Assembly (NCBI GenBank): GCA_903913865.1
Contig: CAIWMU010000175.1
Span: forward strand, 1-62,837
Length of the DNA stretch: 62,837 nucleotides
Source of the DNA: an uncultured Verrucomicrobia subdivision 3 bacterium
GTDB lineage: Bacteria > Verrucomicrobiota > Verrucomicrobiia > Limisphaerales > UBA8199
Direction of reading: 5' to 3'
Made by a program: the position numbers and the translations under genes. Shown here one piece after another: positions 6,590 to 52,190 of the stretch. Under the pieces are notes generated by a model. It was not told the DNA's origin and searched no databases. It saw nothing but the letters and a program-made list of their open reading frames with translations. Each line of letters starts with the position of its first letter. The stretch's first letter is position 1.

Positions 6590-8101
6590 GTGCTGAGGAG
6601 GGATTCATCCCTTGGGACCGATGGATATGGCATCAGTGTGGAGGGGGGCGGGGTGGTGCTGTGGGGGGGCACGGGCAGGGGGGTGGTCAATGCCGTTTAC
6701 GCGCTGCTGGAGGAGGATCTGGGGTGCCGGTTTTATGCGAACGACTCGATTCTGCTGCCGCGAACGAACACGCTGGTGCTGCAGCCGGTTGTGCGGAGAT
6801 TTGTGCCGAGGTTGAGCATTCGCGATCCGTTTTATGCGTGTGCGTTTGATCCTGTGTGGTCGCTGCGGAACCGGACGGATGCGCCATCGGCGGCGGTTCC
6901 GGAGGAGCATGGGGGGCGGATTGATTACGGGGGGATGTTTGTGCACACGGCGGCGCAGATGGTGCCGGAGGGGCGCTATTTCAAGGAGCACCCGGAGTAT
7001 TTTTCCCGGAAGGCGGATGGGACACGCAGCACGGCCCAACTGTGCGCAACGGAGCCGGAGGTGGCCAACATCGCGATTGCCCATGTGCGGCAGATGTTGA
7101 AGGAGAATCCCCACACGGAGATTGTGAGTGTGTCGAAAAACGACAATCCGGAGGTGTGCCATTGTGAGCGGTGTGTGAAGCTGCGGGATGAGGAGGGCTC
7201 GGACATGGCGAACCAGCTGGTGCTGGTGAACCGGGTGGCGGAGGTGATCGGGCAGGAGTTCCCGCAGGTATCGATCGACACGCTGGCCTACCTGGAAACC
7301 ATCCAGGTGCCGAAGACGGCGCGGCCGCGCAAGAACGTGGTGATCCGGCTGTGCAACGACGCCGTGGGATCGTGGACGCACCCGTTCACCCCGGCGGCGG
7401 AGTGTGATGTGGCGAAACTGGTGACGGCGTGGAGCGAGGTGCACAACCGCATCCACATCTGGGATTACAACGTCAATTTCAGCCATTATCTGGCGCCGAT
7501 GCCGAACTTGGAGGTGATGGCGGACAACATCCGGTTCTGGGCTGCACACCATGCCGAGGGGGTGATGCTTCAAGGGGGTTACCAGGGGCCTGCGGAGCGG
7601 GATGAACTCAAGTGCTGGGTGACGGCCAAGCTGCTGTGGGATCCGAGCCGGGATGAGAAGGCGCTGACGCAGGACTTCATCCAGGGGCATTACGGGAAGG
7701 CGGCACCCGCGCTGGCGGAATATGAGGCGCTTCTCGAGGGGGTGAAGAGGGAGCATGCCAAAGAGATGAGGTCTCCCGCGGGGGGCATCCGCTACACGAT
7801 GGATGCGCCGTTTTTCACAAAGGAATTCGTAACGCGGGCCACCGGGATCTTTGCCCGGGCGCGGGAGCTTGCAGCGGGGCAGCCTGAGTTGACCCGGCGT
7901 GTTGAGCGGGCGGAACTGCCGCTGCTCTACATGCAATGTGTAAGGGGACCGGTGCTGACGGGGGACGGGTTTGGCCGGGTGGTGGGGGAGTTTGAACGGA
8001 TCGCCCGCCGGGAGAAGGTGCAGTTCCTGCAGGAGGGCGGGCCGGATTTCGAAGGGAAGCTGGCCGGATACAAGGGGGCCATCCCGAAGCCCACCCGTTA
8101 G
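6590..8101 (+). CDS. DUF4838 domain-containing secreted protein (main part, frameshifted 5' end)
   Basis: This is the long C-terminal part (503 residues from GTG 6590) of a DUF4838 protein, a family often found in Verrucomicrobiota and Bacteroidota near glycan-degrading enzymes. Family-like features include the stretch YALLEEDLGCRFYANDS near the start, the HPEYFSRK segment and a CHCERC cysteine cluster about 180 residues in. The VNRVAEVI and IHIWDYNVNF segments also fit. The signal peptide and first 50 or so residues lie in another frame at 6318-6477, so the intact gene would be 6318-8101. Biochemical function is not established; it may be an extracellular glycoside-hydrolase-like protein. 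Confidence 0.75.
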   Translation: MLRRDSSLGTDGYGISVEGGGVVLWGGTGRGVVNAVYALLEEDLGCRFYANDSILLPRTNTLVLQPVVRRFVPRLSIRDPFYACAFDPVWSLRNRTDAPSAAVPEEHGGRIDYGGMFVHTAAQMVPEGRYFKEHPEYFSRKADGTRSTAQLCATEPEVANIAIAHVRQMLKENPHTEIVSVSKNDNPEVCHCERCVKLRDEEGSDMANQLVLVNRVAEVIGQEFPQVSIDTLAYLETIQVPKTARPRKNVVIRLCNDAVGSWTHPFTPAAECDVAKLVTAWSEVHNRIHIWDYNVNFSHYLAPMPNLEVMADNIRFWAAHHAEGVMLQGGYQGPAERDELKCWVTAKLLWDPSRDEKALTQDFIQGHYGKAAPALAEYEALLEGVKREHAKEMRSPAGGIRYTMDAPFFTKEFVTRATGIFARARELAAGQPELTRRVERAELPLLYMQCVRGPVLTGDGFGRVVGEFERIARREKVQFLQEGGPDFEGKLAGYKGAIPKPTR

Positions 8102-44115: not shown

Positions 44116-46128
44116 TTGGCCCGCCCGCGAGAAAATGCGGGAACGCGACGTTGCAAATTAATGACCAGAAGCCCGACAATCATCAGAGTTACCGCCATTG
44201 CCCTCGTGGCCCTTCTGGCCGCGGTTGGTGGTTTGCTGGGTGTGCGCGCCTGGCGGGCAAAGACCATCCTCCGGCAGGAACAGAAAGCGCTGGCAACCGC
44301 CGGGGAAATGGTTGCCAACGGGAAGTCCACCGAGGCACTGGCCCTTGTCCAGAGCTTCTCAAAAACCCAGACAGACCCCGGGGATGAATGGCGCCGGCTG
44401 GAGCTTTCGGCTCTTGTTTCCCTGCTGGATGTTCCCCGGCTCGCCCTCATCTATGAGCGCACCCCGCAACGCATTCTGGCAGACGAAAAGGCCTCCATTC
44501 TGGTGGCCCGCGGCTTTATCCATGCCCGCAAACAGGAGGATTTCAGCAGGATCCGGTCGGTCTGGCGGGGTAAAGAGCAGCAGGCCGACGGATGGCTGGC
44601 GCTCGATTCAGACGCCCTGATCCTCGCCGGAAAACCGGGCGATGCCGAGAAACTGCTCCGGTCCAAGCCGCTGCCAGGCGAGGAGGATGCCACACGCCTC
44701 CTCCGATTGGCGCTGGTGACGGCAAAAAAGGACATGCCCGGTGCATGGAAACTCCTGGCCCAGGCCACCTCGCTCCAGCCCCGCAACCCGGATCTTCGTT
44801 CGTTTCGCGCCCAGATACTGGAGGCCACCGGCCGCATCGAACTGGCCCGGGTGGAATATGTGGCCGCCCTCATGGCCAACCCCAAAAGCCCCCTGCTCCG
44901 GGATCAATTGGCTGACTTCTACATGCGGAACCACAATCCGGATCTTGCACTCGACACCTGGGTTGAAGCACTCCCACTGCAGGCCCTTGATTTCATCTGG
45001 CTCAAGGCCCGGTTTTGGAGCCGCGTGATCAGACCCGTCGAGTTCGCAGGGAAGGGAGAGCCACCTCCGGGTGATCTGGAACCGCTGGTCCGCCAGATTG
45101 CCGCGCTCGCTCCGGATCGCTTCTTTGATGCAACCGCCTTCGATCAACTGCCACGCGCCAAACGCTATTCGGCACAGCGTCAGGAGGTGTTCTGGTTGCG
45201 CCTTCTGGATCACCTTCAAACCCGTCAGGAGCCCCAGGCCCTTCAACTGCTCGAATTCGGCCCCGCGAACCTCCGCTCATGGGATCCGGATCTGGCGGCC
45301 GCGATTTATCGCATCCTCTACTTCCGGCAGCACCAGTCGCTGAATCCCCCCAGGCTGGTCTTCACCAGCGCCATTCCTGCCACCAACCGCCACCCGTTTT
45401 TTGTAACTCTGGAGGAGGCCGCCCTTCAGGAGCGCTCCACCCATTCGATCCGCGCCTCCCTCCCGCCGGATGTGGCCTCCCTGCTGAGAGGCCCAAACGC
45501 CTTCCCGGCCGCCCTGCTGGCAGCGGGCTGGCGCGAGGCGACCCTCCAGCTTCGACAGAATCAGGGCCCGGATTCCGACGGGCCTGAGTGGCTTCGCTAC
45601 GGTTTCGCCCAGATACTGCGCCTGAATCGCGCTCCCAAAACAGCCCTCTCATACCTGGGCAGTGGGCCGCTCCCGCCCGTGCTCGGATTGCTCCGGGCCG
45701 AGATCCACGCCGAACTGGGTCAACTCCCGGAATCCATCACGGAGATGACTCCCCTGGCTCCCCTGCCATCCAGTGTCGGATTTCGTGCCTCATACCTGCT
45801 GGCCCTCAACGCCGTGGAGCACCACGACCTTTCCGCAGCAACCCGGTTCGTCACCAGCCAGCCTCTTCTCGCAAACGATCTCACCGGCAAAGAACTCCTC
45901 GCGCGGCTCGCCCTCCTTGAAAACAACATTCCCGGGGCCGAACTGATTTATAGGGAGATCCTGCCCCGCTCCATTGAGGCCAAAACATGGTTCGCCCGGC
46001 AGGCCTTTTCCAAAAAACAATGGAAGGAGGCCCGCAGCCTCACCACTGAATTGCTGAAACTGATGCCCGATTCCCCCCAACTCCGCGAGAATATGCTGGC
46101 GATCGACAAGGCGGAGTCGATGCGATGA
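44116..46128 (+). CDS. TPR-like membrane-anchored protein of the exosortase operon
   Basis: This protein of about 670 residues has one N-terminal membrane anchor (IIRVTAIALVALLAAVGGLLGV). Most of its length is helical repeats with a TPR feel (for example AWKLLAQATSLQPRNPDLRSF, then ARVEYVAALMANPKSPLLR). TPR proteins regularly accompany exosortases in PEP-CTERM loci. TTG 44116 has a strong Shine-Dalgarno (GGAGG) six bases upstream and is used here; ATG 44161 would keep the anchor but lacks a site. The stop overlaps the exosortase start by four bases. A role in presenting cargo or polymer is inference. Confidence 0.68.
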   Translation: MARPRENAGTRRCKLMTRSPTIIRVTAIALVALLAAVGGLLGVRAWRAKTILRQEQKALATAGEMVANGKSTEALALVQSFSKTQTDPGDEWRRLELSALVSLLDVPRLALIYERTPQRILADEKASILVARGFIHARKQEDFSRIRSVWRGKEQQADGWLALDSDALILAGKPGDAEKLLRSKPLPGEEDATRLLRLALVTAKKDMPGAWKLLAQATSLQPRNPDLRSFRAQILEATGRIELARVEYVAALMANPKSPLLRDQLADFYMRNHNPDLALDTWVEALPLQALDFIWLKARFWSRVIRPVEFAGKGEPPPGDLEPLVRQIAALAPDRFFDATAFDQLPRAKRYSAQRQEVFWLRLLDHLQTRQEPQALQLLEFGPANLRSWDPDLAAAIYRILYFRQHQSLNPPRLVFTSAIPATNRHPFFVTLEEAALQERSTHSIRASLPPDVASLLRGPNAFPAALLAAGWREATLQLRQNQGPDSDGPEWLRYGFAQILRLNRAPKTALSYLGSGPLPPVLGLLRAEIHAELGQLPESITEMTPLAPLPSSVGFRASYLLALNAVEHHDLSAATRFVTSQPLLANDLTGKELLARLALLENNIPGAELIYREILPRSIEAKTWFARQAFSKKQWKEARSLTTELLKLMPDSPQLRENMLAIDKAESMR

Positions 46129-47573
46129 AAATCCGGGATCGTGCCTGGTTCACCCTGCTCGCCATGTTCGGCGCCTTTATCTGGCTCCGGGATCGCGCAT
46201 GGGTTGCATCGGCCTCAGAGACGCTGCCCATCCTCGCCGCCCTCCCGCTTTTCATCTGGTTCGGGTCTCCCTGGCGTCTCCCGGAAACACGGTTCCGGCT
46301 GGACCCCGCCGCCATAGCTGCCTCGGGACTTCTGCTCCTGGCCGGTCTGGCAGCTGATTCAACCTTCCTCCTCGCCGCCGCGTGGACCGTCGCCCTCTGG
46401 AGCTGGCTCCTTGGCCGGTCATCCGAACAACCGATCGTCTCCCCACGGCTCCTGCTCCTGCCCATGATGGCCTTCCCGTGGGTTTCCCTTGACCTTGAGC
46501 GGCTGGGTTGGTGGTTCAGACTCAGTGCCGCCTGGTCCACTGAGCATCTATTCGCCGCCACCGGCCTTGCTGTCACGCGGCACGGCACGAACCTCCTGGT
46601 TCAGGGCCAACCCATCGATGTGACCCCGGCCTGCTCCGGAATGCATTCCCTCCAGGCCTATCTCATCGCGGGGATTCTCATCGCCTTTATCGAGCAGAAA
46701 CCCGCCCCGGTCCGTGATGGGAAGGTTCCCACCCTCCCGTCATCAGACTCCTTCCTCCTTGAGAACGCCTTCTGGATCAGCATAGCCACCATACCGCCCC
46801 TGGCTTGGATCGCCAACGTCATCCGCGTCTCCACCCTCACTGCTGCAGCCCTCACCTGGGGGGATGATTTTGCCCGGGGCTGGTTCCACGGCATCGGCGG
46901 CTGGTTCGCTGTCGCCATCCCGTTCCTTTGCTGGTGGGGTATCCTCCGGGCAGTTAAAACGTTCCTGCCCCAGCCGGACGCCACAAATCCGGAACCTCAG
47001 CCCGACACGGCAGGGTCGCCCCCAACCACCACCCGGACCCCCATTGCCAGCCCGACCAGAATCCTCGCCTCCATCGACCCTCAATGGGCCATTCTCGCTT
47101 TTTGCATCTGGCAGGCGTCCGACCTCGTGATCGCCTGGAGCCATTCCCCGTTTGATTCCTTCGGCTGGCTGGCCCTCCTTCTTTGGCTCACCCCGCAAGC
47201 AGACCGGCTAATCCGTCGGTATTTGTCCGGTTCCAACCCTCTCTGGCCCTCACAAATGGAACAGCCGGACTCCCTCCCTCCCGTGCCATTGGCTCTCTGG
47301 GCGGCCCTGCTCGCCTGCTTTTTCGGAATCCTCACAGACCTGCATTTTCTAAAGCACTGTGCCCTGGCCCTGGCCTGTGCCGGTATCACCTCCCGGTTCC
47401 GGTTCTGGCTGCCATGGTTCCTCCTTTCCATTTCATGGATGCCTGCGCTGGGTTGGGTCCTCGCGGCGCTGCACCCGGTCGCGGTCACTTCCATCCGCCT
47501 CACCCTGGCTGCTCTCGCGGCCCTGCTCCCCCTGTATGGGGCATGGTCCGCCCCCCGGAGGTCAGCCCCTTGA
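46125..47573 (+). CDS. Exosortase (archaeosortase/exosortase family)
   Basis: This 482-residue polytopic membrane peptidase/transpeptidase has the catalytic triad regions TPACSGMHSL (Cys about 170), IANVIRVST (Arg about 234) and WFHGIGGWF (His about 255). It would cleave PEP-CTERM tails such as that of the neighbouring DUF4114 protein and attach the protein to a surface lipid or polysaccharide. After a soluble linker rich in Pro/Thr (about 285-330), a further 150 residues carry several hydrophobic segments without a triad. Standard exosortases are about 280-330 residues, so this C-terminal module is unusual. It is coupled to the TPR gene and to the EpsI-like gene (TTGA overlap). Confidence 0.88.
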   Translation: MKIRDRAWFTLLAMFGAFIWLRDRAWVASASETLPILAALPLFIWFGSPWRLPETRFRLDPAAIAASGLLLLAGLAADSTFLLAAAWTVALWSWLLGRSSEQPIVSPRLLLLPMMAFPWVSLDLERLGWWFRLSAAWSTEHLFAATGLAVTRHGTNLLVQGQPIDVTPACSGMHSLQAYLIAGILIAFIEQKPAPVRDGKVPTLPSSDSFLLENAFWISIATIPPLAWIANVIRVSTLTAAALTWGDDFARGWFHGIGGWFAVAIPFLCWWGILRAVKTFLPQPDATNPEPQPDTAGSPPTTTRTPIASPTRILASIDPQWAILAFCIWQASDLVIAWSHSPFDSFGWLALLLWLTPQADRLIRRYLSGSNPLWPSQMEQPDSLPPVPLALWAALLACFFGILTDLHFLKHCALALACAGITSRFRFWLPWFLLSISWMPALGWVLAALHPVAVTSIRLTLAALAALLPLYGAWSAPRRSAP

Positions 47574-48187
47574 AAATCTCCCCGCGCAACTGGCTCTGGG
47601 TTGGGTTTGCAGCACTGTTCCTGTTCAGCCTGCTCCATCAACTGCCCCCCGCGCCTCAAGTTCCCCAACCGGCAGGCTCAACCTCAACGGCAGCTGGCAG
47701 ATTCTCCAATATTCCCTGTTCAGGCCTCGGTTTCCAGGGTCGTGATATCCCTTTGAACACAACGGAAAACACCGTCTACAGGGAGGCTGCCGCCCTCAAG
47801 CGGAGCTACCAATCCGGTTCACACGGTTTCATCCTCACGGCTGTGGATGGAAGCCGGAACCGCCATGCGGTTCACGATCCCCTTTATTGCATCCGTGGGG
47901 ATGGCTGGCAGATCCTCCACGGGCAGACCATCACCGTGCCCGGCGGCAACGCCCGGCTGCTCAGCCTGACCCGCGCCGGGCGAGGGACGGAAGTCCTGTT
48001 CTGGTTCAGCAACGGTTCCACCCGCCACCAATCCGCCTGGCGTGCATGGTGGCTCAGCCTGACGCGCCGCATCTCCTTCGGAATGACCGGATCCGATCCC
48101 ACGCTGGTCTTCCTCCAGCCCGCCACCGATCAGGCGCCTGATTGGCAGAGCGTTTTCGCCAGGTGCCCCTTCCTTTTCGACATATGA
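47570..48187 (+). CDS. EpsI-like exosortase-associated protein (DUF3485)
   Basis: This 205-residue protein has an N-terminal membrane segment (NWLWVGFAALFLFSLLHQ). The EpsI/DUF3485-like region includes VYREAAALKRSY, HAVHDPLYCIRGDGWQIL and VLFWFSNGSTRHQSAWRAWW. EpsI proteins sit directly after exosortases, often as a fused domain. The TTG start (47570) overlaps the exosortase stop (TTGA) and has GGAGG eight bases upstream. The stop overlaps the next GT2 gene by four bases. Confidence 0.8.
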   Translation: MKISPRNWLWVGFAALFLFSLLHQLPPAPQVPQPAGSTSTAAGRFSNIPCSGLGFQGRDIPLNTTENTVYREAAALKRSYQSGSHGFILTAVDGSRNRHAVHDPLYCIRGDGWQILHGQTITVPGGNARLLSLTRAGRGTEVLFWFSNGSTRHQSAWRAWWLSLTRRISFGMTGSDPTLVFLQPATDQAPDWQSVFARCPFLFDI

Positions 48188-49011
48188 GCCAACCAGCCAC
48201 TCCCAGACCGACAGTCGGCGTTGTCATCCGCTTCAAGAACTCCGCCGCCACCCTGCCGGCGGTGGTGGAGGCCCTCAGCAAACAAACACGACAACCGGAC
48301 CTCATCATCGGCGTCAACAACGGCAGCACCGATGCCTCTGCCAGCATCCTGAGTTCAGCCGGCGCACGGATTATCGACTGGACGAAACCCTACGGCCATC
48401 CACAGGTGCTGAACTTCGCACTCAGCCACTGCCACACCGATCTCGTTCTGGTCCTCAGTTCACACACGGTGCTCAACTCCACCGATGCCGTGGAAAAGCT
48501 CGCGGGTGCCATGACCGACCCACGCACAGCCTGCGCCAGTGGCAAATGGGATTCCGACCCGTTCTACAGCGACACCATTGATTGGGATGAGTTGAAGACA
48601 AAAGGGCTGAAGTTCGGATCCATCTATACCAACAGCATGGGCATCCTCCGCCGCTCCCTCTGGGAGCAGTGCCCGTTCGATGAATCCATTTCCACCATGG
48701 AGGATTGCGTCTGGGCGCTCGAACAAGTCCACTGCGGTCATCTCTGCCGCCGTGTCCGGATTGATTTCAGCTACCAGCGCAGCACGACTGACCGCACCTT
48801 CGTCTTTGCCGCCCACACCTTCCAGCTGGCAGCCCGGCACGATCTCAGAGTCACTTGGCTTGGCCCGATTGCGACCATCAAGAGCCTGATTTCGGGAACC
48901 TTCGATCCACAGGTCCTCTCAAGCCCTGCCCGGAAACAGGAACGTCGCAACCACGTGGACCGGCTCAAAGCCTGGGCCTACGGACGGTGGATGAAGAACC
49001 TCTCCGAATAG
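48184..49011 (+). CDS. Glycosyltransferase family 2
   Basis: This 275-residue GT-A enzyme has VGVVIRFKNSAATLPAVVEAL at the start, IIGVNNGSTDASASIL (nucleotide site) and VLVLSSHTVLNS, in which the DXD aspartates are absent. EDCVWALEQV follows. It is the last of the coupled TPR-exosortase-EpsI-GT2 genes. The lack of an obvious DXD raises the possibility of a non-standard metal site. It may act on the polysaccharide or a carrier used by the exosortase system. Confidence 0.82.
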   Translation: MSQPATPRPTVGVVIRFKNSAATLPAVVEALSKQTRQPDLIIGVNNGSTDASASILSSAGARIIDWTKPYGHPQVLNFALSHCHTDLVLVLSSHTVLNSTDAVEKLAGAMTDPRTACASGKWDSDPFYSDTIDWDELKTKGLKFGSIYTNSMGILRRSLWEQCPFDESISTMEDCVWALEQVHCGHLCRRVRIDFSYQRSTTDRTFVFAAHTFQLAARHDLRVTWLGPIATIKSLISGTFDPQVLSSPARKQERRNHVDRLKAWAYGRWMKNLSE

Positions 49012-49454: not shown

Positions 49455-49994
49455 TTAGCCGCCCCCGGCCCTGACCATGGTGGCGTTGGATATCTCCACG
49501 CCACGAAGGATGAAGGTATTCCCCGCTGTGATGATAAATCCGTGCTTCAGGAACAGGGGCTGGGCTGTAAGGCTTACTCTGGCGTGGATCGGGTCGATCC
49601 CGCCGGCCTTCGCCTCGGCCAAAAGATGCCCCATAAGGACCGACCCGAAGCCCTTGCGCCCCTGACTCCCCGCCACATAGAAGTGGTCTATGTAACCATT
49701 GGGCTGGAGGTCCCCATACGCCACAAGCCCATCGGCTGTCTCCACGACCCATGGACGGAGGGATCGCATAAGAATGACCCACGCCTCTGAATCAAACGTG
49801 GCCGGGGCCCAGGCCGAACGCTGCTCGGAACTGTAATGCGTCCTCCCGTGGTCGTGGACCGAGGAATGAAAAATCGATCGAAGCCCCAATTCCTCGCCAT
49901 CCCGGATCCTGCGTATGAGCATGCGATCAAGCGATGAACCTGCCACCACGGGGGCCGTGCCTCGCGGTTCCGGGCCAGTCACTTCAGGGATCAT
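49455..49994 (-). CDS. GNAT-family N-acetyltransferase
   Basis: This 179-residue protein has the GNAT fold. The conserved acetyl-CoA pyrophosphate loop is SQGRKGFGSVLMGHLL (Q/R-x-x-G-x-G), with flanking strands YIDHFYVAGS and ARVSLTAQPLFLKHGF. ATG 49994 overlaps the signal-peptidase-like stop (ATGA) and is preceded by a GAGG ribosome-binding site. The first conserved residues start at MLIRRIRDG (49922), so the N-terminal 24 residues may be non-essential. The substrate is unknown. Confidence 0.78.
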   Translation of the reverse strand: MIPEVTGPEPRGTAPVVAGSSLDRMLIRRIRDGEELGLRSIFHSSVHDHGRTHYSSEQRSAWAPATFDSEAWVILMRSLRPWVVETADGLVAYGDLQPNGYIDHFYVAGSQGRKGFGSVLMGHLLAEAKAGGIDPIHARVSLTAQPLFLKHGFIITAGNTFILRGVEISNATMVRAGGG

Positions 49995-50554
49995 TTGTTC
50001 CTCACGCGCCCCAGAATCCGCTGTCCCGACACGGGTCCCCAGAAGCGGCTGTCGAATGAGTTCGTCGTGTTATCCCCCAGCAGGAAGTAGCTCCCCTCCG
50101 GGATTTTGCAGGGGTAGCTCACGCCCCGCACCATTGCGCCTTGTATACCCGGAAAGTAGCGAATCCCATCGATCCGCCCCGGCTGCGCCTGCCGCCTGCC
50201 ATCGGCATAAATCCCATCCCCCCGGATATCAAGACTCTCCCCGGGCAGCCCCGCCACCCGCATCACCCATACCTCGCCCTGCTTTGTCCCGGTCTCCTCC
50301 GTGGGCGGGTAGAACACAACCACATCCCACCGTTGCGGTTTGCCGGATCTGTAGGCACCCATCTCCGCCACCACACTCTCATTCGGCTGGATCGTGGGGG
50401 CCATCGCCGAGGAGCCGTTCTGCCGGAACGCGCGGTCCGAGCAGCCGGTGGCAGCGATGACGGCCAGCGCCACCCCGAGAAATCCCCGCGCAAGCCTGCG
50501 CCAAACCGCCCCGCCCGGCATTGGCGCCGTTGCCCCATGTGCTGTCTTTGTCAT
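49991..50554 (-). CDS. Signal peptidase I-like lipoprotein, catalytic residues missing
   Basis: This 187-residue protein of the S26 fold has box order SSAMAPTIQPNE, VMRVAGLPGE and FLLGDNTTNSFDSRFWG. In active type I signal peptidases the residue before Met in box B is the nucleophile Ser; here it is Ala50. The Lys of box D (K-R-x-x-G-L-P-G) is replaced by Met98. An N-terminal hydrophobic segment ends in ATGC (Cys38), a possible lipobox, instead of the usual membrane anchor. It is coupled at both ends by four-base overlaps. Protease activity seems unlikely; peptide binding or a scaffold role is possible. Confidence 0.8.
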   Translation of the reverse strand: MTKTAHGATAPMPGGAVWRRLARGFLGVALAVIAATGCSDRAFRQNGSSAMAPTIQPNESVVAEMGAYRSGKPQRWDVVVFYPPTEETGTKQGEVWVMRVAGLPGESLDIRGDGIYADGRRQAQPGRIDGIRYFPGIQGAMVRGVSYPCKIPEGSYFLLGDNTTNSFDSRFWGPVSGQRILGRVRNK

Positions 50555-50931
50555 GATCCTGTTGATCCGTTTAGGATTTTCTCTCCCACAATACTCCAGG
50601 CTCTCGAGATCCGGCCTCCCTGCACTTCGTAAATCATCAGGAGTCTGATCCTGCCGGGTCCCTCCGGGAAGTTTCGGGTGACCTCCTCGTGGTCGGCAAC
50701 GGTGTGGCCGACCACCGTCCTGCCCAGCAGGGTCGCGTGCAAATTGGGCTCCTGGAACCGGGCCTCAAAACGCTTCCGCAACTCAGCTGCCCCGTTTGCC
50801 AACAGTTTGTCCGGATGCTCAAACATCTGTGCATCCTCCCCATAGGTGGCAAGCAACGCCTCCACATCACGGGCATTGTAGGCGTCGAGTTGCCTCTGCA
50901 CGACCGCCTCTGGATCATTTGCCGTCATCAT
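50551..50931 (-). CDS. SnoaL-like/NTF2-family protein
   Basis: This 126-residue alpha+beta-barrel protein opens VQRQLDAYNARDVEALLATYGEDAQMFE, the polyketide-cyclase/NTF2-like pattern. It continues with an RKRFEARF helix and strands (VTRNFPEG, IRLLMIYEVQGGRI). The substrate is unknown; many are small-molecule binders or enzymes. It is the first gene before the signal-peptidase-like gene, overlapping it by four bases. Confidence 0.82.
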   Translation of the reverse strand: MMTANDPEAVVQRQLDAYNARDVEALLATYGEDAQMFEHPDKLLANGAAELRKRFEARFQEPNLHATLLGRTVVGHTVADHEEVTRNFPEGPGRIRLLMIYEVQGGRISRAWSIVGEKILNGSTGS

Positions 50932-51573: not shown

Positions 51574-51942
51574 TTAGGGGACTACCCCCTTTACATGGGT
51601 CGCCTCCCAGTTTTTTCGCGCTCCCAGGCAATCCGGGCAAACATAAAGGACCGCCTGAGTCGGTGTGCCAAGGAAACACCCACCCAGGAAATAGGTGTCG
51701 GCATGTGGAAAATGATTTGTGCTGGCGACCTCGCGCGCCTGCTGCTCGCTGTTCAGCCGGATCAACCCGTAGATGATTGGAACATTCGTCTTCGCCATCC
51801 GAATGCTGTGCAACTCGCAAAAGCCCGCCGCCCCTATGGTCCAATCAGAGGTGTATTTGTCGCACCCGACCATCCCCGGCACAAGGCACACCAGCGTGAA
51901 CATCTCCAGCCAGGGCCGCCGCCGCAGATGGCCGGTCTTCAC
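51574..51942 (-). CDS. Putative lipoprotein of unknown function
   Basis: This 122-residue protein starts at GTG 51942, which overlaps the upstream stop in a GTGA arrangement with a purine-rich site before it. After a basic N-terminus comes a hydrophobic stretch ending MVGC, a possible lipobox. The mature part has four Cys (FCELHS, GGCF, YVCPDC), so it may bind a metal or form disulfides; CPDC resembles a thiol/zinc motif. I do not recognise a family. Confidence 0.55.
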   Translation of the reverse strand: MKTGHLRRRPWLEMFTLVCLVPGMVGCDKYTSDWTIGAAGFCELHSIRMAKTNVPIIYGLIRLNSEQQAREVASTNHFPHADTYFLGGCFLGTPTQAVLYVCPDCLGARKNWEATHVKGVVP

Positions 51943-52190
51943 GACCTCTTCCTCCACTCCAGAATGAACTGCAGGATCGCAGCGAAGCACCCCAACCCAC
52001 CGCCCAGCAACACACCCGTCGTGGCGCCGCAAAAGGTGGCGAAGCCCACCGGCTCCACATCCTGCCAGGGCACGATGTGCCGGAAGAAATCCGGCGTGAT
52101 GCGCCCCGCAGCAAAGCCGAACAAGCCGCCCATTGCCAGACCTGCCAGCGCGGCGAGTGTCACTGCGATAAATGTCTTCAAAAGAGTCAT
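51939..52190 (-). CDS. Small membrane protein of unknown function
   Basis: This 83-residue protein has two hydrophobic segments, TFIAVTLAALAGLAMGGLFGF and FATFCGATTGVLLGGGLGCFAA, and a basic end. Glycine-rich helices suggest packing in a small oligomer. It is coupled to the putative lipoprotein by a four-base overlap. The start at ATG 52190 is chosen because it begins the first membrane segment. Family unknown. Confidence 0.6.
   Translation of the reverse strand: MTLLKTFIAVTLAALAGLAMGGLFGFAAGRITPDFFRHIVPWQDVEPVGFATFCGATTGVLLGGGLGCFAAILQFILEWRKRS

What the first reader, a model, noticed from the sequence alone, without database searches (positions are those of the whole stretch)
49991..50554. 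Signal-peptidase fold without Ser-Lys dyad, possibly a lipoprotein
Both catalytic positions are changed (Ser to Ala50, Lys to Met98), while the structural box GDNTTNSFDSR is intact. The usual membrane anchor is replaced by a possible lipobox. Loss of both residues together with retained fold suggests a selected non-enzymatic role, for example binding a signal sequence, in an operon with NTF2-like and GNAT proteins.
Basis: partly seen in the sequence, partly recalled or inferred. Interest (0 to 1): 0.6.

Follow-up and report, generated by a model that had tools for sequence, protein, structure and literature searches.

The report
Dyadless signal-peptidase lipoprotein, cassette-borne family
This gene makes a lipid-anchored look-alike of the enzyme that trims exported proteins; its cutting residues are gone in every close relative yet the protein is strongly conserved, and its relatives hop between genomes as integron cassettes, which points to an unknown binding job rather than a broken gene.

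Summary
Window 49991-50554 (-) encodes a 187-aa S26 (signal peptidase I) homologue scoring above the Pfam and NCBIfam cut-offs. The general-base Lys is Met98, without any alignment gap. The nucleophile position reads Ala50, though an Ala inserted between Ser49 and Met51 fits equally well. Three other S26 proteins in the genome keep Ser and Lys. Three close orthologues (61-66% identity) have the same Ala, Met and lipobox Cys; dN/dS is 0.07-0.09, so this is not a pseudogene or sequencing error. The AlphaFold model's best structural match is SipA, the dyad-less S. pyogenes pilus factor. (1) The gene belongs to a patchy family of small S26 lipoproteins in Verrucomicrobiota whose dyad varies (SK, SL, SF, SS, SA, AF, GK, GR, AM). 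(2) Many relatives are integron gene cassettes: attC sites flank them, integron integrases are nearby, and boundaries lie exactly at the G|TT crossover. The window copy has no detectable attC and sits in an overlapping NTF2-like/S26/GNAT unit that relatives do not share, so the operon gives no functional clue. Most likely role (inferred): a lipid-anchored, non-catalytic peptide-binding protein of the cell envelope. Known precedent: SipA. New: the lipid anchor, cassette mobility and phylum.

The parts
49991..50554 (-). S26 (signal peptidase I-like) lipoprotein gene, 187 aa, dyad lost
   Evidence: model; fold matches
50441..50497 (-). signal sequence h-region and lipobox, ending at the codon of Cys38 (50441-50443)
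   Evidence: PS00013 pattern met; Cys conserved in the family. Lipidation itself is inferred
50405..50407 (-). codon of Ala50 (GCG) at the nucleophile position
   Evidence: GCG in the window and UBA6082, GCC in the Umea1 bin and G835: Ala kept through silent changes. An inserted Ala after Ser49 is an equally good alignment
50261..50263 (-). codon of Met98 (ATG) at the general-base (Lys) position
   Evidence: gap-free in every alignment; Met in the window protein and its three orthologues
50045..50077 (-). box E GDNTTNSFDSR, intact
50551..50931 (-). upstream SnoaL_2/NTF2-like gene, overlapping the S26 gene by 4 bp (ATGA); not shared by orthologue loci
   Evidence: PF12680, 48.3 bits
49455..49994 (-). 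downstream GNAT gene, overlapping the S26 gene by 4 bp (ATGA); not shared by orthologue loci
   Evidence: PF13673, 36.2 bits

Best explanation
The gene encodes a lipid-anchored, catalytically dead member of the signal peptidase I fold. Shown by computation: the profile match and predicted fold, the loss of the Lys and of the Ser-Met motif, the lipobox, conservation of all these in three orthologues under strong purifying selection, and that relatives are carried as integron gene cassettes. Inferred: it is exported by Sec, lipidated at Cys38 and tethered to a membrane with the domain in the periplasm (Ser at +2 would send it to the outer membrane by the E. coli rule, which may not hold here). 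There the old substrate cleft, whose frame is retained (M51, P53, VVVF, GLPGE, box E) with a changed edge strand, binds an extended peptide or exported protein without cutting it. It would act as a holder, adaptor or assembly factor, as SipA is proposed to do in pilus assembly. Its accessory status (patchy, relatives cassette-borne) suggests a dispensable, niche-dependent envelope function.
For: Above-threshold S26 matches. AlphaFold model pLDDT 82.7, pTM 0.74; best VIA-align match SipA 4n31, Z 16.1 over 132 residues, then SpsB and LepB at Z 13.7-14.8; Foldseek E 2e-9 to SpsB and 2e-8 to SipA. Same Ala, Met and lipobox in UBA6082, the Umea1 bin and G835, one clade with the window protein at 97/86. 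dN/dS 0.094, 0.094 and 0.066 among those orthologues. Three other S26 proteins with Ser and Lys in the genome. Cassette carriage of relatives. SipA precedent: Asp and Gly at the dyad, no peptidase activity, peptide cleft retained, essential for pilus polymerisation (PMC4049620).
Against: No binding partner is known and the gene neighbourhood is not conserved, so 'peptide binding' rests on the fold and on SipA alone. In the A/M branch the residues just before the nucleophile position (Ile-Pro in LepB) are changed, so the pockets may not be kept. The lipobox is a pattern match, not a measured modification, and at residue 38 it lies further from the start than in the orthologues (17). The model has its weakest stretch (pLDDT under 50) inside box E (166-168).
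Confidence: 0.6

Rival explanations
1. A modulator or decoy of protein export: by holding signal peptides or pre-proteins, or by pairing with an active signal peptidase, the dead copy slows or redirects processing by LepB or by the Ser/Lys-bearing paralogues.
For: Same fold and box E as the active enzymes; paralogues with intact dyads present in the genome; cassette relatives with an intact dyad exist (G288, G279, L141).
Against: No genetic link with lepB; the +2 Ser would place it in the outer membrane, away from the translocon, if the E. coli rule holds.
Confidence: 0.15
2. Still an enzyme by another route: Ser49 (if Ala50 is an insertion) or another residue acts as nucleophile with a different base.
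For: The alignment leaves room for an Ala inserted after Ser49; several relatives keep Ser while losing Lys (SF, SL, SS, SA).
Against: The Lys position is Met in the window protein and all three orthologues; S26 chemistry needs a general base; across relatives the Lys position holds A, F, L, S, M, Q or R with no consistent substitute.
Confidence: 0.1
3. A decaying pseudogene or sequencing error.
For: Both catalytic residues lost; the sequence comes from a fragmented assembly; no attC found at the window copy.
Against: Three orthologues from other genomes share the same states, dN/dS 0.07-0.09 among them, full-length ORF with ATGA-overlapping neighbours.
Confidence: 0.03
4. A protective cassette: a sponge for signal-peptidase inhibitors (arylomycin-like) or other cleft-binding lipopeptides.
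For: Integrons often carry protective genes (general knowledge); the fold matches LepB-arylomycin complexes (3s04, 3iiq).
Against: From general knowledge of those complexes, arylomycin contacts the Ser/Lys dyad, which is missing here; nothing in the locus points to antibiotics.
Confidence: 0.05

Closest known systems
SipA of Streptococcus pyogenes (PDB 4n31, 4k8w)
   Same: S26 fold with both dyad residues replaced; best structural match (Z 16.1); described as inactive with a retained peptide cleft (PMC4049620)
   Different: SipA has a transmembrane anchor, Asp/Gly at the dyad, and sits in a sortase pilus cluster of Gram-positives; about 20% identity; this one is a probable lipoprotein in Verrucomicrobiota with no pilin or sortase-pilus genes beside it
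Bacterial signal peptidase I (LepB, SpsB; PF10502, TIGR02227)
   Same: profile match, predicted fold, box E, GLPGE, VVVF
   Different: no Lys, no Ser-Met motif, RWD instead of RGD, lipobox instead of a plain membrane anchor, ends right after box E (GRVxxK)
Integron gene cassettes (mobile and chromosomal integrons)
   Same: relatives lie between attC sites, several next to integron integrases, with boundaries at G|TT and copies at different array positions
   Different: a signal-peptidase-fold cargo was not found in the literature searched; the window copy itself has no detectable attC

Membership tests
Signal peptidase I (peptidase S26) | profile match above the curated cut-off | tested here: met
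   PF10502 103.1 bits, TIGR02227 90.9 bits
Signal peptidase I (peptidase S26) | SPase I fold | tested here: met
   AlphaFold model matches SpsB, LepB and SipA, Z 13.7-16.1
Signal peptidase I (peptidase S26) | Ser nucleophile in the SxM motif | tested here: not met
   Ala50-Met51; no Ser-Met in the window protein or its three orthologues
Signal peptidase I (peptidase S26) | Lys general base before RVxGLPG | tested here: not met
   Met98, gap-free
Signal peptidase I (peptidase S26) | N-terminal transmembrane anchor | tested here: inconclusive
   one hydrophobic stretch (15-37 helical in the model) that ends in a lipobox
Signal peptidase I (peptidase S26) | cleaves pre-proteins | not testable with these tools
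   needs an assay
SipA-type inactive SPase homologue | both dyad residues replaced, fold retained | tested here: met
   dyad lost, fold match Z 16.1; the cleft was judged only by fold, not residue by residue
SipA-type inactive SPase homologue | located in a sortase pilus gene cluster | tested here: not met
   no pilin or sortase gene beside it in the window, UBA6082 or Umea1 loci; the exosortase at 46125 is on the other strand and its block occurs without the S26 gene in G009 and G011
Bacterial lipoprotein | lipobox with Cys conserved in orthologues | tested here: met
   PS00013 pattern, Cys38 invariant in alignment A2
Bacterial lipoprotein | lipid attached to the Cys | not testable with these tools
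   needs mass spectrometry or globomycin/palmitate labelling
Integron gene cassette (relatives) | gene flanked by attC, in an array with an integron integrase, boundaries at G|TT | tested here: met
   G288, G279 (two genes) and G275 (three copies) with IntI in the genome; attC flanks in G631 (two), Umea1 bin, UBA6082 and L141
Integron gene cassette (window copy) | attC after the gene or unit | tested here: not met
   no attC in 46-56 kb with filters off, none in the genome with this model, no IntI above cut-off; the model is built from distant attC sites, so a divergent site could be missed

The most novel reading that the evidence does not exclude
A previously undescribed family of mobile cell-envelope genes: signal-peptidase-fold lipoproteins carried as integron cassettes across Verrucomicrobiota, in which the catalytic dyad is repeatedly dispensed with because the selected function is ligand or peptide binding at the membrane surface, possibly modulating export or envelope assembly.
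Probability: 0.45. Interest if true: 0.7.

Novelty: new variant of a known kind. Interest (0 to 1): 0.6.

Why it matters
Signal peptidase I is essential, and its best-described dead relative (SipA) works in pilus assembly by an unknown mechanism. A natural series inside one family, from intact dyad (SK) through single losses (SF, SL, SS, SA, GK) to double loss (AM, AF, GR), gives a ready test of what the fold does when it does not cut. Its spread as integron cassettes shows that such proteins are useful enough to be traded between genomes, which is an unexpected cargo for integrons and a route to find the function. It also warns that profile hits well above cut-off would annotate these dead proteins as signal peptidases.

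Tried and rejected
Pseudogene or sequencing error: rejected by orthologues and dN/dS. Operon-based function from the NTF2-like and GNAT neighbours: not supported, because UBA6082, Umea1 and G835 have other neighbours, and tblastn of the window's small ORFs found none of them in the relatives' loci. Link to the nearby exosortase block (46.1-49.0 kb, opposite strand): that block is conserved in G009 and G011 without the S26 gene, so the S26 cluster is an independent neighbour. Window copy as a present cassette: my pairing scan and a covariance model found no attC there; a GTTAAG upstream of the NTF2 gene and ggcTAAC at the GNAT stop look like possible half-sites but pair with nothing, so I make no claim. 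Plasmid collection: only ordinary signal peptidases below 35% identity among the best rows. Literature searches for signal peptidase in integron cassettes or S26 pseudoproteases in Verrucomicrobia gave nothing relevant besides SipA. Weak points: the tree's lipoprotein group is 90/92 (not starred) and one member (G282) falls outside on a long branch; the numbers of dyad changes come from a chosen sample, not a survey; my hand-made attC pairing score is noisy at lower thresholds.

Full report
What was claimed and what is there. The ORF at 49991-50554 on the minus strand encodes 187 aa and is a clear S26 homologue: PF10502 103.1 bits (cut-off 22.9) and TIGR02227 signal peptidase I 90.9 bits (cut-off 47). 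By score alone an annotation pipeline would call it an active signal peptidase. In alignments with the other S26 proteins of the genome and of relatives, the Lys of the box-D motif (YVKRVxGLPGD) is Met98 without any gap, and the Ser of the SxM motif reads as Ala50. The second point needs a caveat. Compared with close dyad-bearing and single-loss relatives, the stretch from the upstream Phe is one residue longer (FRQNGSSAM against FVQKSSSM), so an Ala inserted between Ser49 and Met51 is as good an alignment as a Ser-to-Ala replacement. Either way there is no Ser-Met motif, and the general base is gone. Box E, GDNTTNSFDSR, is intact. Box C reads RWD where signal peptidases have RGD, and most of the family's closer members share this Trp.

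Genome control. The genome (6.27 Mb, 267 contigs, 95% complete) holds three further S26 proteins, all with Ser and Lys: a LepB-like protein of 412 aa on C88, one on C239 beside a prepilin-peptidase-like gene, and one on C61. So the cell need not depend on the window gene for signal peptide removal.

Orthologues. Close relatives at 61-66% identity occur in Verrucomicrobia subdivision 3 (Limisphaerales) genomes: UBA6082 (L036, which is genome G007), an Umea1 bin (L037, genome G826) and G835. All three have the same Ala, the same Met and the same lipobox Cys. They form one clade with the window protein at 97/86 in a tree built without the two dyad columns. Pairwise dN/dS among the three is 0.094, 0.094 and 0.066 (dS to the window protein is saturated); the Ala codon is GCG in the window and UBA6082 and GCC in the other two. 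The protein is therefore kept by strong purifying selection in its dyad-less state.

The anchor. The N-terminus ends in a lipobox (VIAATGC, Cys38) that fits the PS00013 pattern. In 15 of 18 family members a matching Cys lies 8-12 residues before box B, against 0 of 38 other S26 proteins of the same sample; the Cys is invariant in the family alignment. Two more members (G533) have a near-lipobox that misses the pattern, and one (G232) has extra hydrophobic segments instead. Lipidation is inferred.

The family and its dyad. With profiles from the orthologues I searched samples of the order (320 genomes), class (384) and phylum (387). The family is rare and patchy: about half a dozen genomes in each sample score above the bulk of other S26 proteins, and the window's genus-mate G001 lacks it. 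Dyad states read from the alignments: SK in G288, G279 copy a and a metagenomic contig (L141); SL in G279 copy b; SF in G533 (two), G631 and G232; SS in G275; SA in G342; GK in G724; AF in G653; GR in G667; AM in the window clade. G282 (SL) sits on a long branch outside. The group of 17 has support 90/92, just short of a firm clade. Dyad loss is thus recurrent, and Lys is often lost while Ser stays. Outside the lipoprotein group other Verrucomicrobiota S26 proteins also lack one or both residues, for example a TGAM group with Lys kept in G001, G052 and G713.

Cassettes. This was not in the finding. In G279 the two S26 lipoprotein genes lie in an array of small ORFs that starts at an integron integrase (TIGR02249, 418 bits), each gene followed by a repeat of attC type. 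G288 and G275 show the same (integrases 420 and 344 bits). Comparing G288 and G279 base by base: 200 bp upstream of the attI crossover are 99.0% identical. In G288 the S26 cassette begins right there (ATACTATACG|TTCGGAAATG), while in G279 the same cassette (97.4% over 500 bp) stands further down the array after an attC (CTCAAGCG|TTCGGAAATG). In G275 three copies of one S26 cassette have different neighbours, and the identity starts exactly at ACG|TTGGCCC and ends at CTCAAACG|TT. A covariance model built from 17 attC sites recovers the canonical R and L pairings. It finds sites not used to build it directly before and after the S26 genes of G631 (L164 3611-3691 and 4153-4216; L165 7109-7190 and, weakly, 7652-7769), and only weakly (E 0.3-0.7) after those of L141 and the Umea1 orthologue (L037 5464-5592). 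L036 and L037 show attC boundaries by eye and by pairing score. Background at 412 ORF ends reached a score of 13 in 1.2% and 14 in none; the L036 site scores 13.8, while the L037 site scores only 12 in that test and rests on its 104-nt, 96% repeat.

The window copy. No attC is found within 46-56 kb even with filters off, nor anywhere in the genome with this model, and no integron integrase passes the cut-off. The model comes from distant attC sites, so divergent sites could be missed. The gene overlaps an NTF2-like (SnoaL_2) gene upstream and a GNAT gene downstream by 4 bp each, which suggests one transcript. The neighbouring exosortase/DUF3485/glycosyltransferase block is conserved in G009 and G011 without these small ORFs. 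The orthologues in UBA6082, Umea1 and G835 have different neighbours. I read the window cluster as accessory genes; whether it is an old cassette that lost its attC is open.

Structure. AlphaFold2 with 13 sequences gives pLDDT 82.7, pTM 0.74. Foldseek puts SpsB, SipA and LepB on top. VIA-align 2 puts SipA (4n31) first at Z 16.1 over 132 residues, then SpsB and LepB at 13.7-14.8; the lead over LexA and UmuD (Z about 8) is clear, the order among the top rows less so. SipA has Asp and Gly at the dyad, shows no peptidase activity, keeps the cleft and is essential for pilus polymerisation (PMC4049620).

Mechanism. Shown: profile match and predicted fold, loss of the dyad, conservation, selection, lipobox, cassette carriage of relatives. 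Inferred: export, lipidation, periplasmic orientation (outer membrane if the E. coli +2 rule holds), and use of the cleft to hold an extended peptide or exported protein without cutting. I give 0.6 to this reading as a whole. Rivals are modulation of export, residual catalysis, an inhibitor sponge and decay, the last nearly excluded.

Filing. It works like a SipA-type non-peptidase S26 homologue; it is not a signal peptidase, since two tested catalytic features fail, and not a pilus SipA, since that context fails. Novelty: a new variant of a known kind, with the lipid anchor, the cassette mobility of the family and the graded dyad loss as the new parts.

Noticed in passing
L072 (G279), L071 (G288), L075 and L076 (G275), L164 and L165 (G631): Chromosomal integron arrays in Verrucomicrobiota, with attC sites of about 60 to 133 nt and many small uncharacterised ORFs; duplicated S26 cassettes within one genome.
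   Followed up: partly
L011 (G001), L009 (G052), L128 (G713): A second, membrane-anchored S26 group in the window's order with TGAM (Ser to Ala) but Lys kept; other such S26 proteins lack Lys (L047, L051) or both residues (L053 Thr/Gln, L054 Ala/Met, L059 Gly/His, L077 Gly/Gln).
   Followed up: partly
L141 4990-5842: A contig filed as viral (IMG/VR) carries attC-like repeats around an S26 lipoprotein gene with intact Ser/Lys at its end; this part may be integron rather than phage.
   Followed up: partly
window 46125-49011: Exosortase (EpsH), DUF3485 and glycosyltransferase 2 genes in a row on the plus strand, conserved in G009 and G011.
   Followed up: partly
window 51574-52032 (-): Small ORF without a Pfam match, possibly another lipoprotein (VPGMVGC), in the same strand-aligned run of small genes (GNAT, PPOX/Nim-like) as the S26 unit.
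   Followed up: no
G001:C2:20-805 (L178): Integron integrase (294 bits) at a contig end in the window's genus-mate, which lacks the S26 lipoprotein; integrons do exist in this genus.
   Followed up: no
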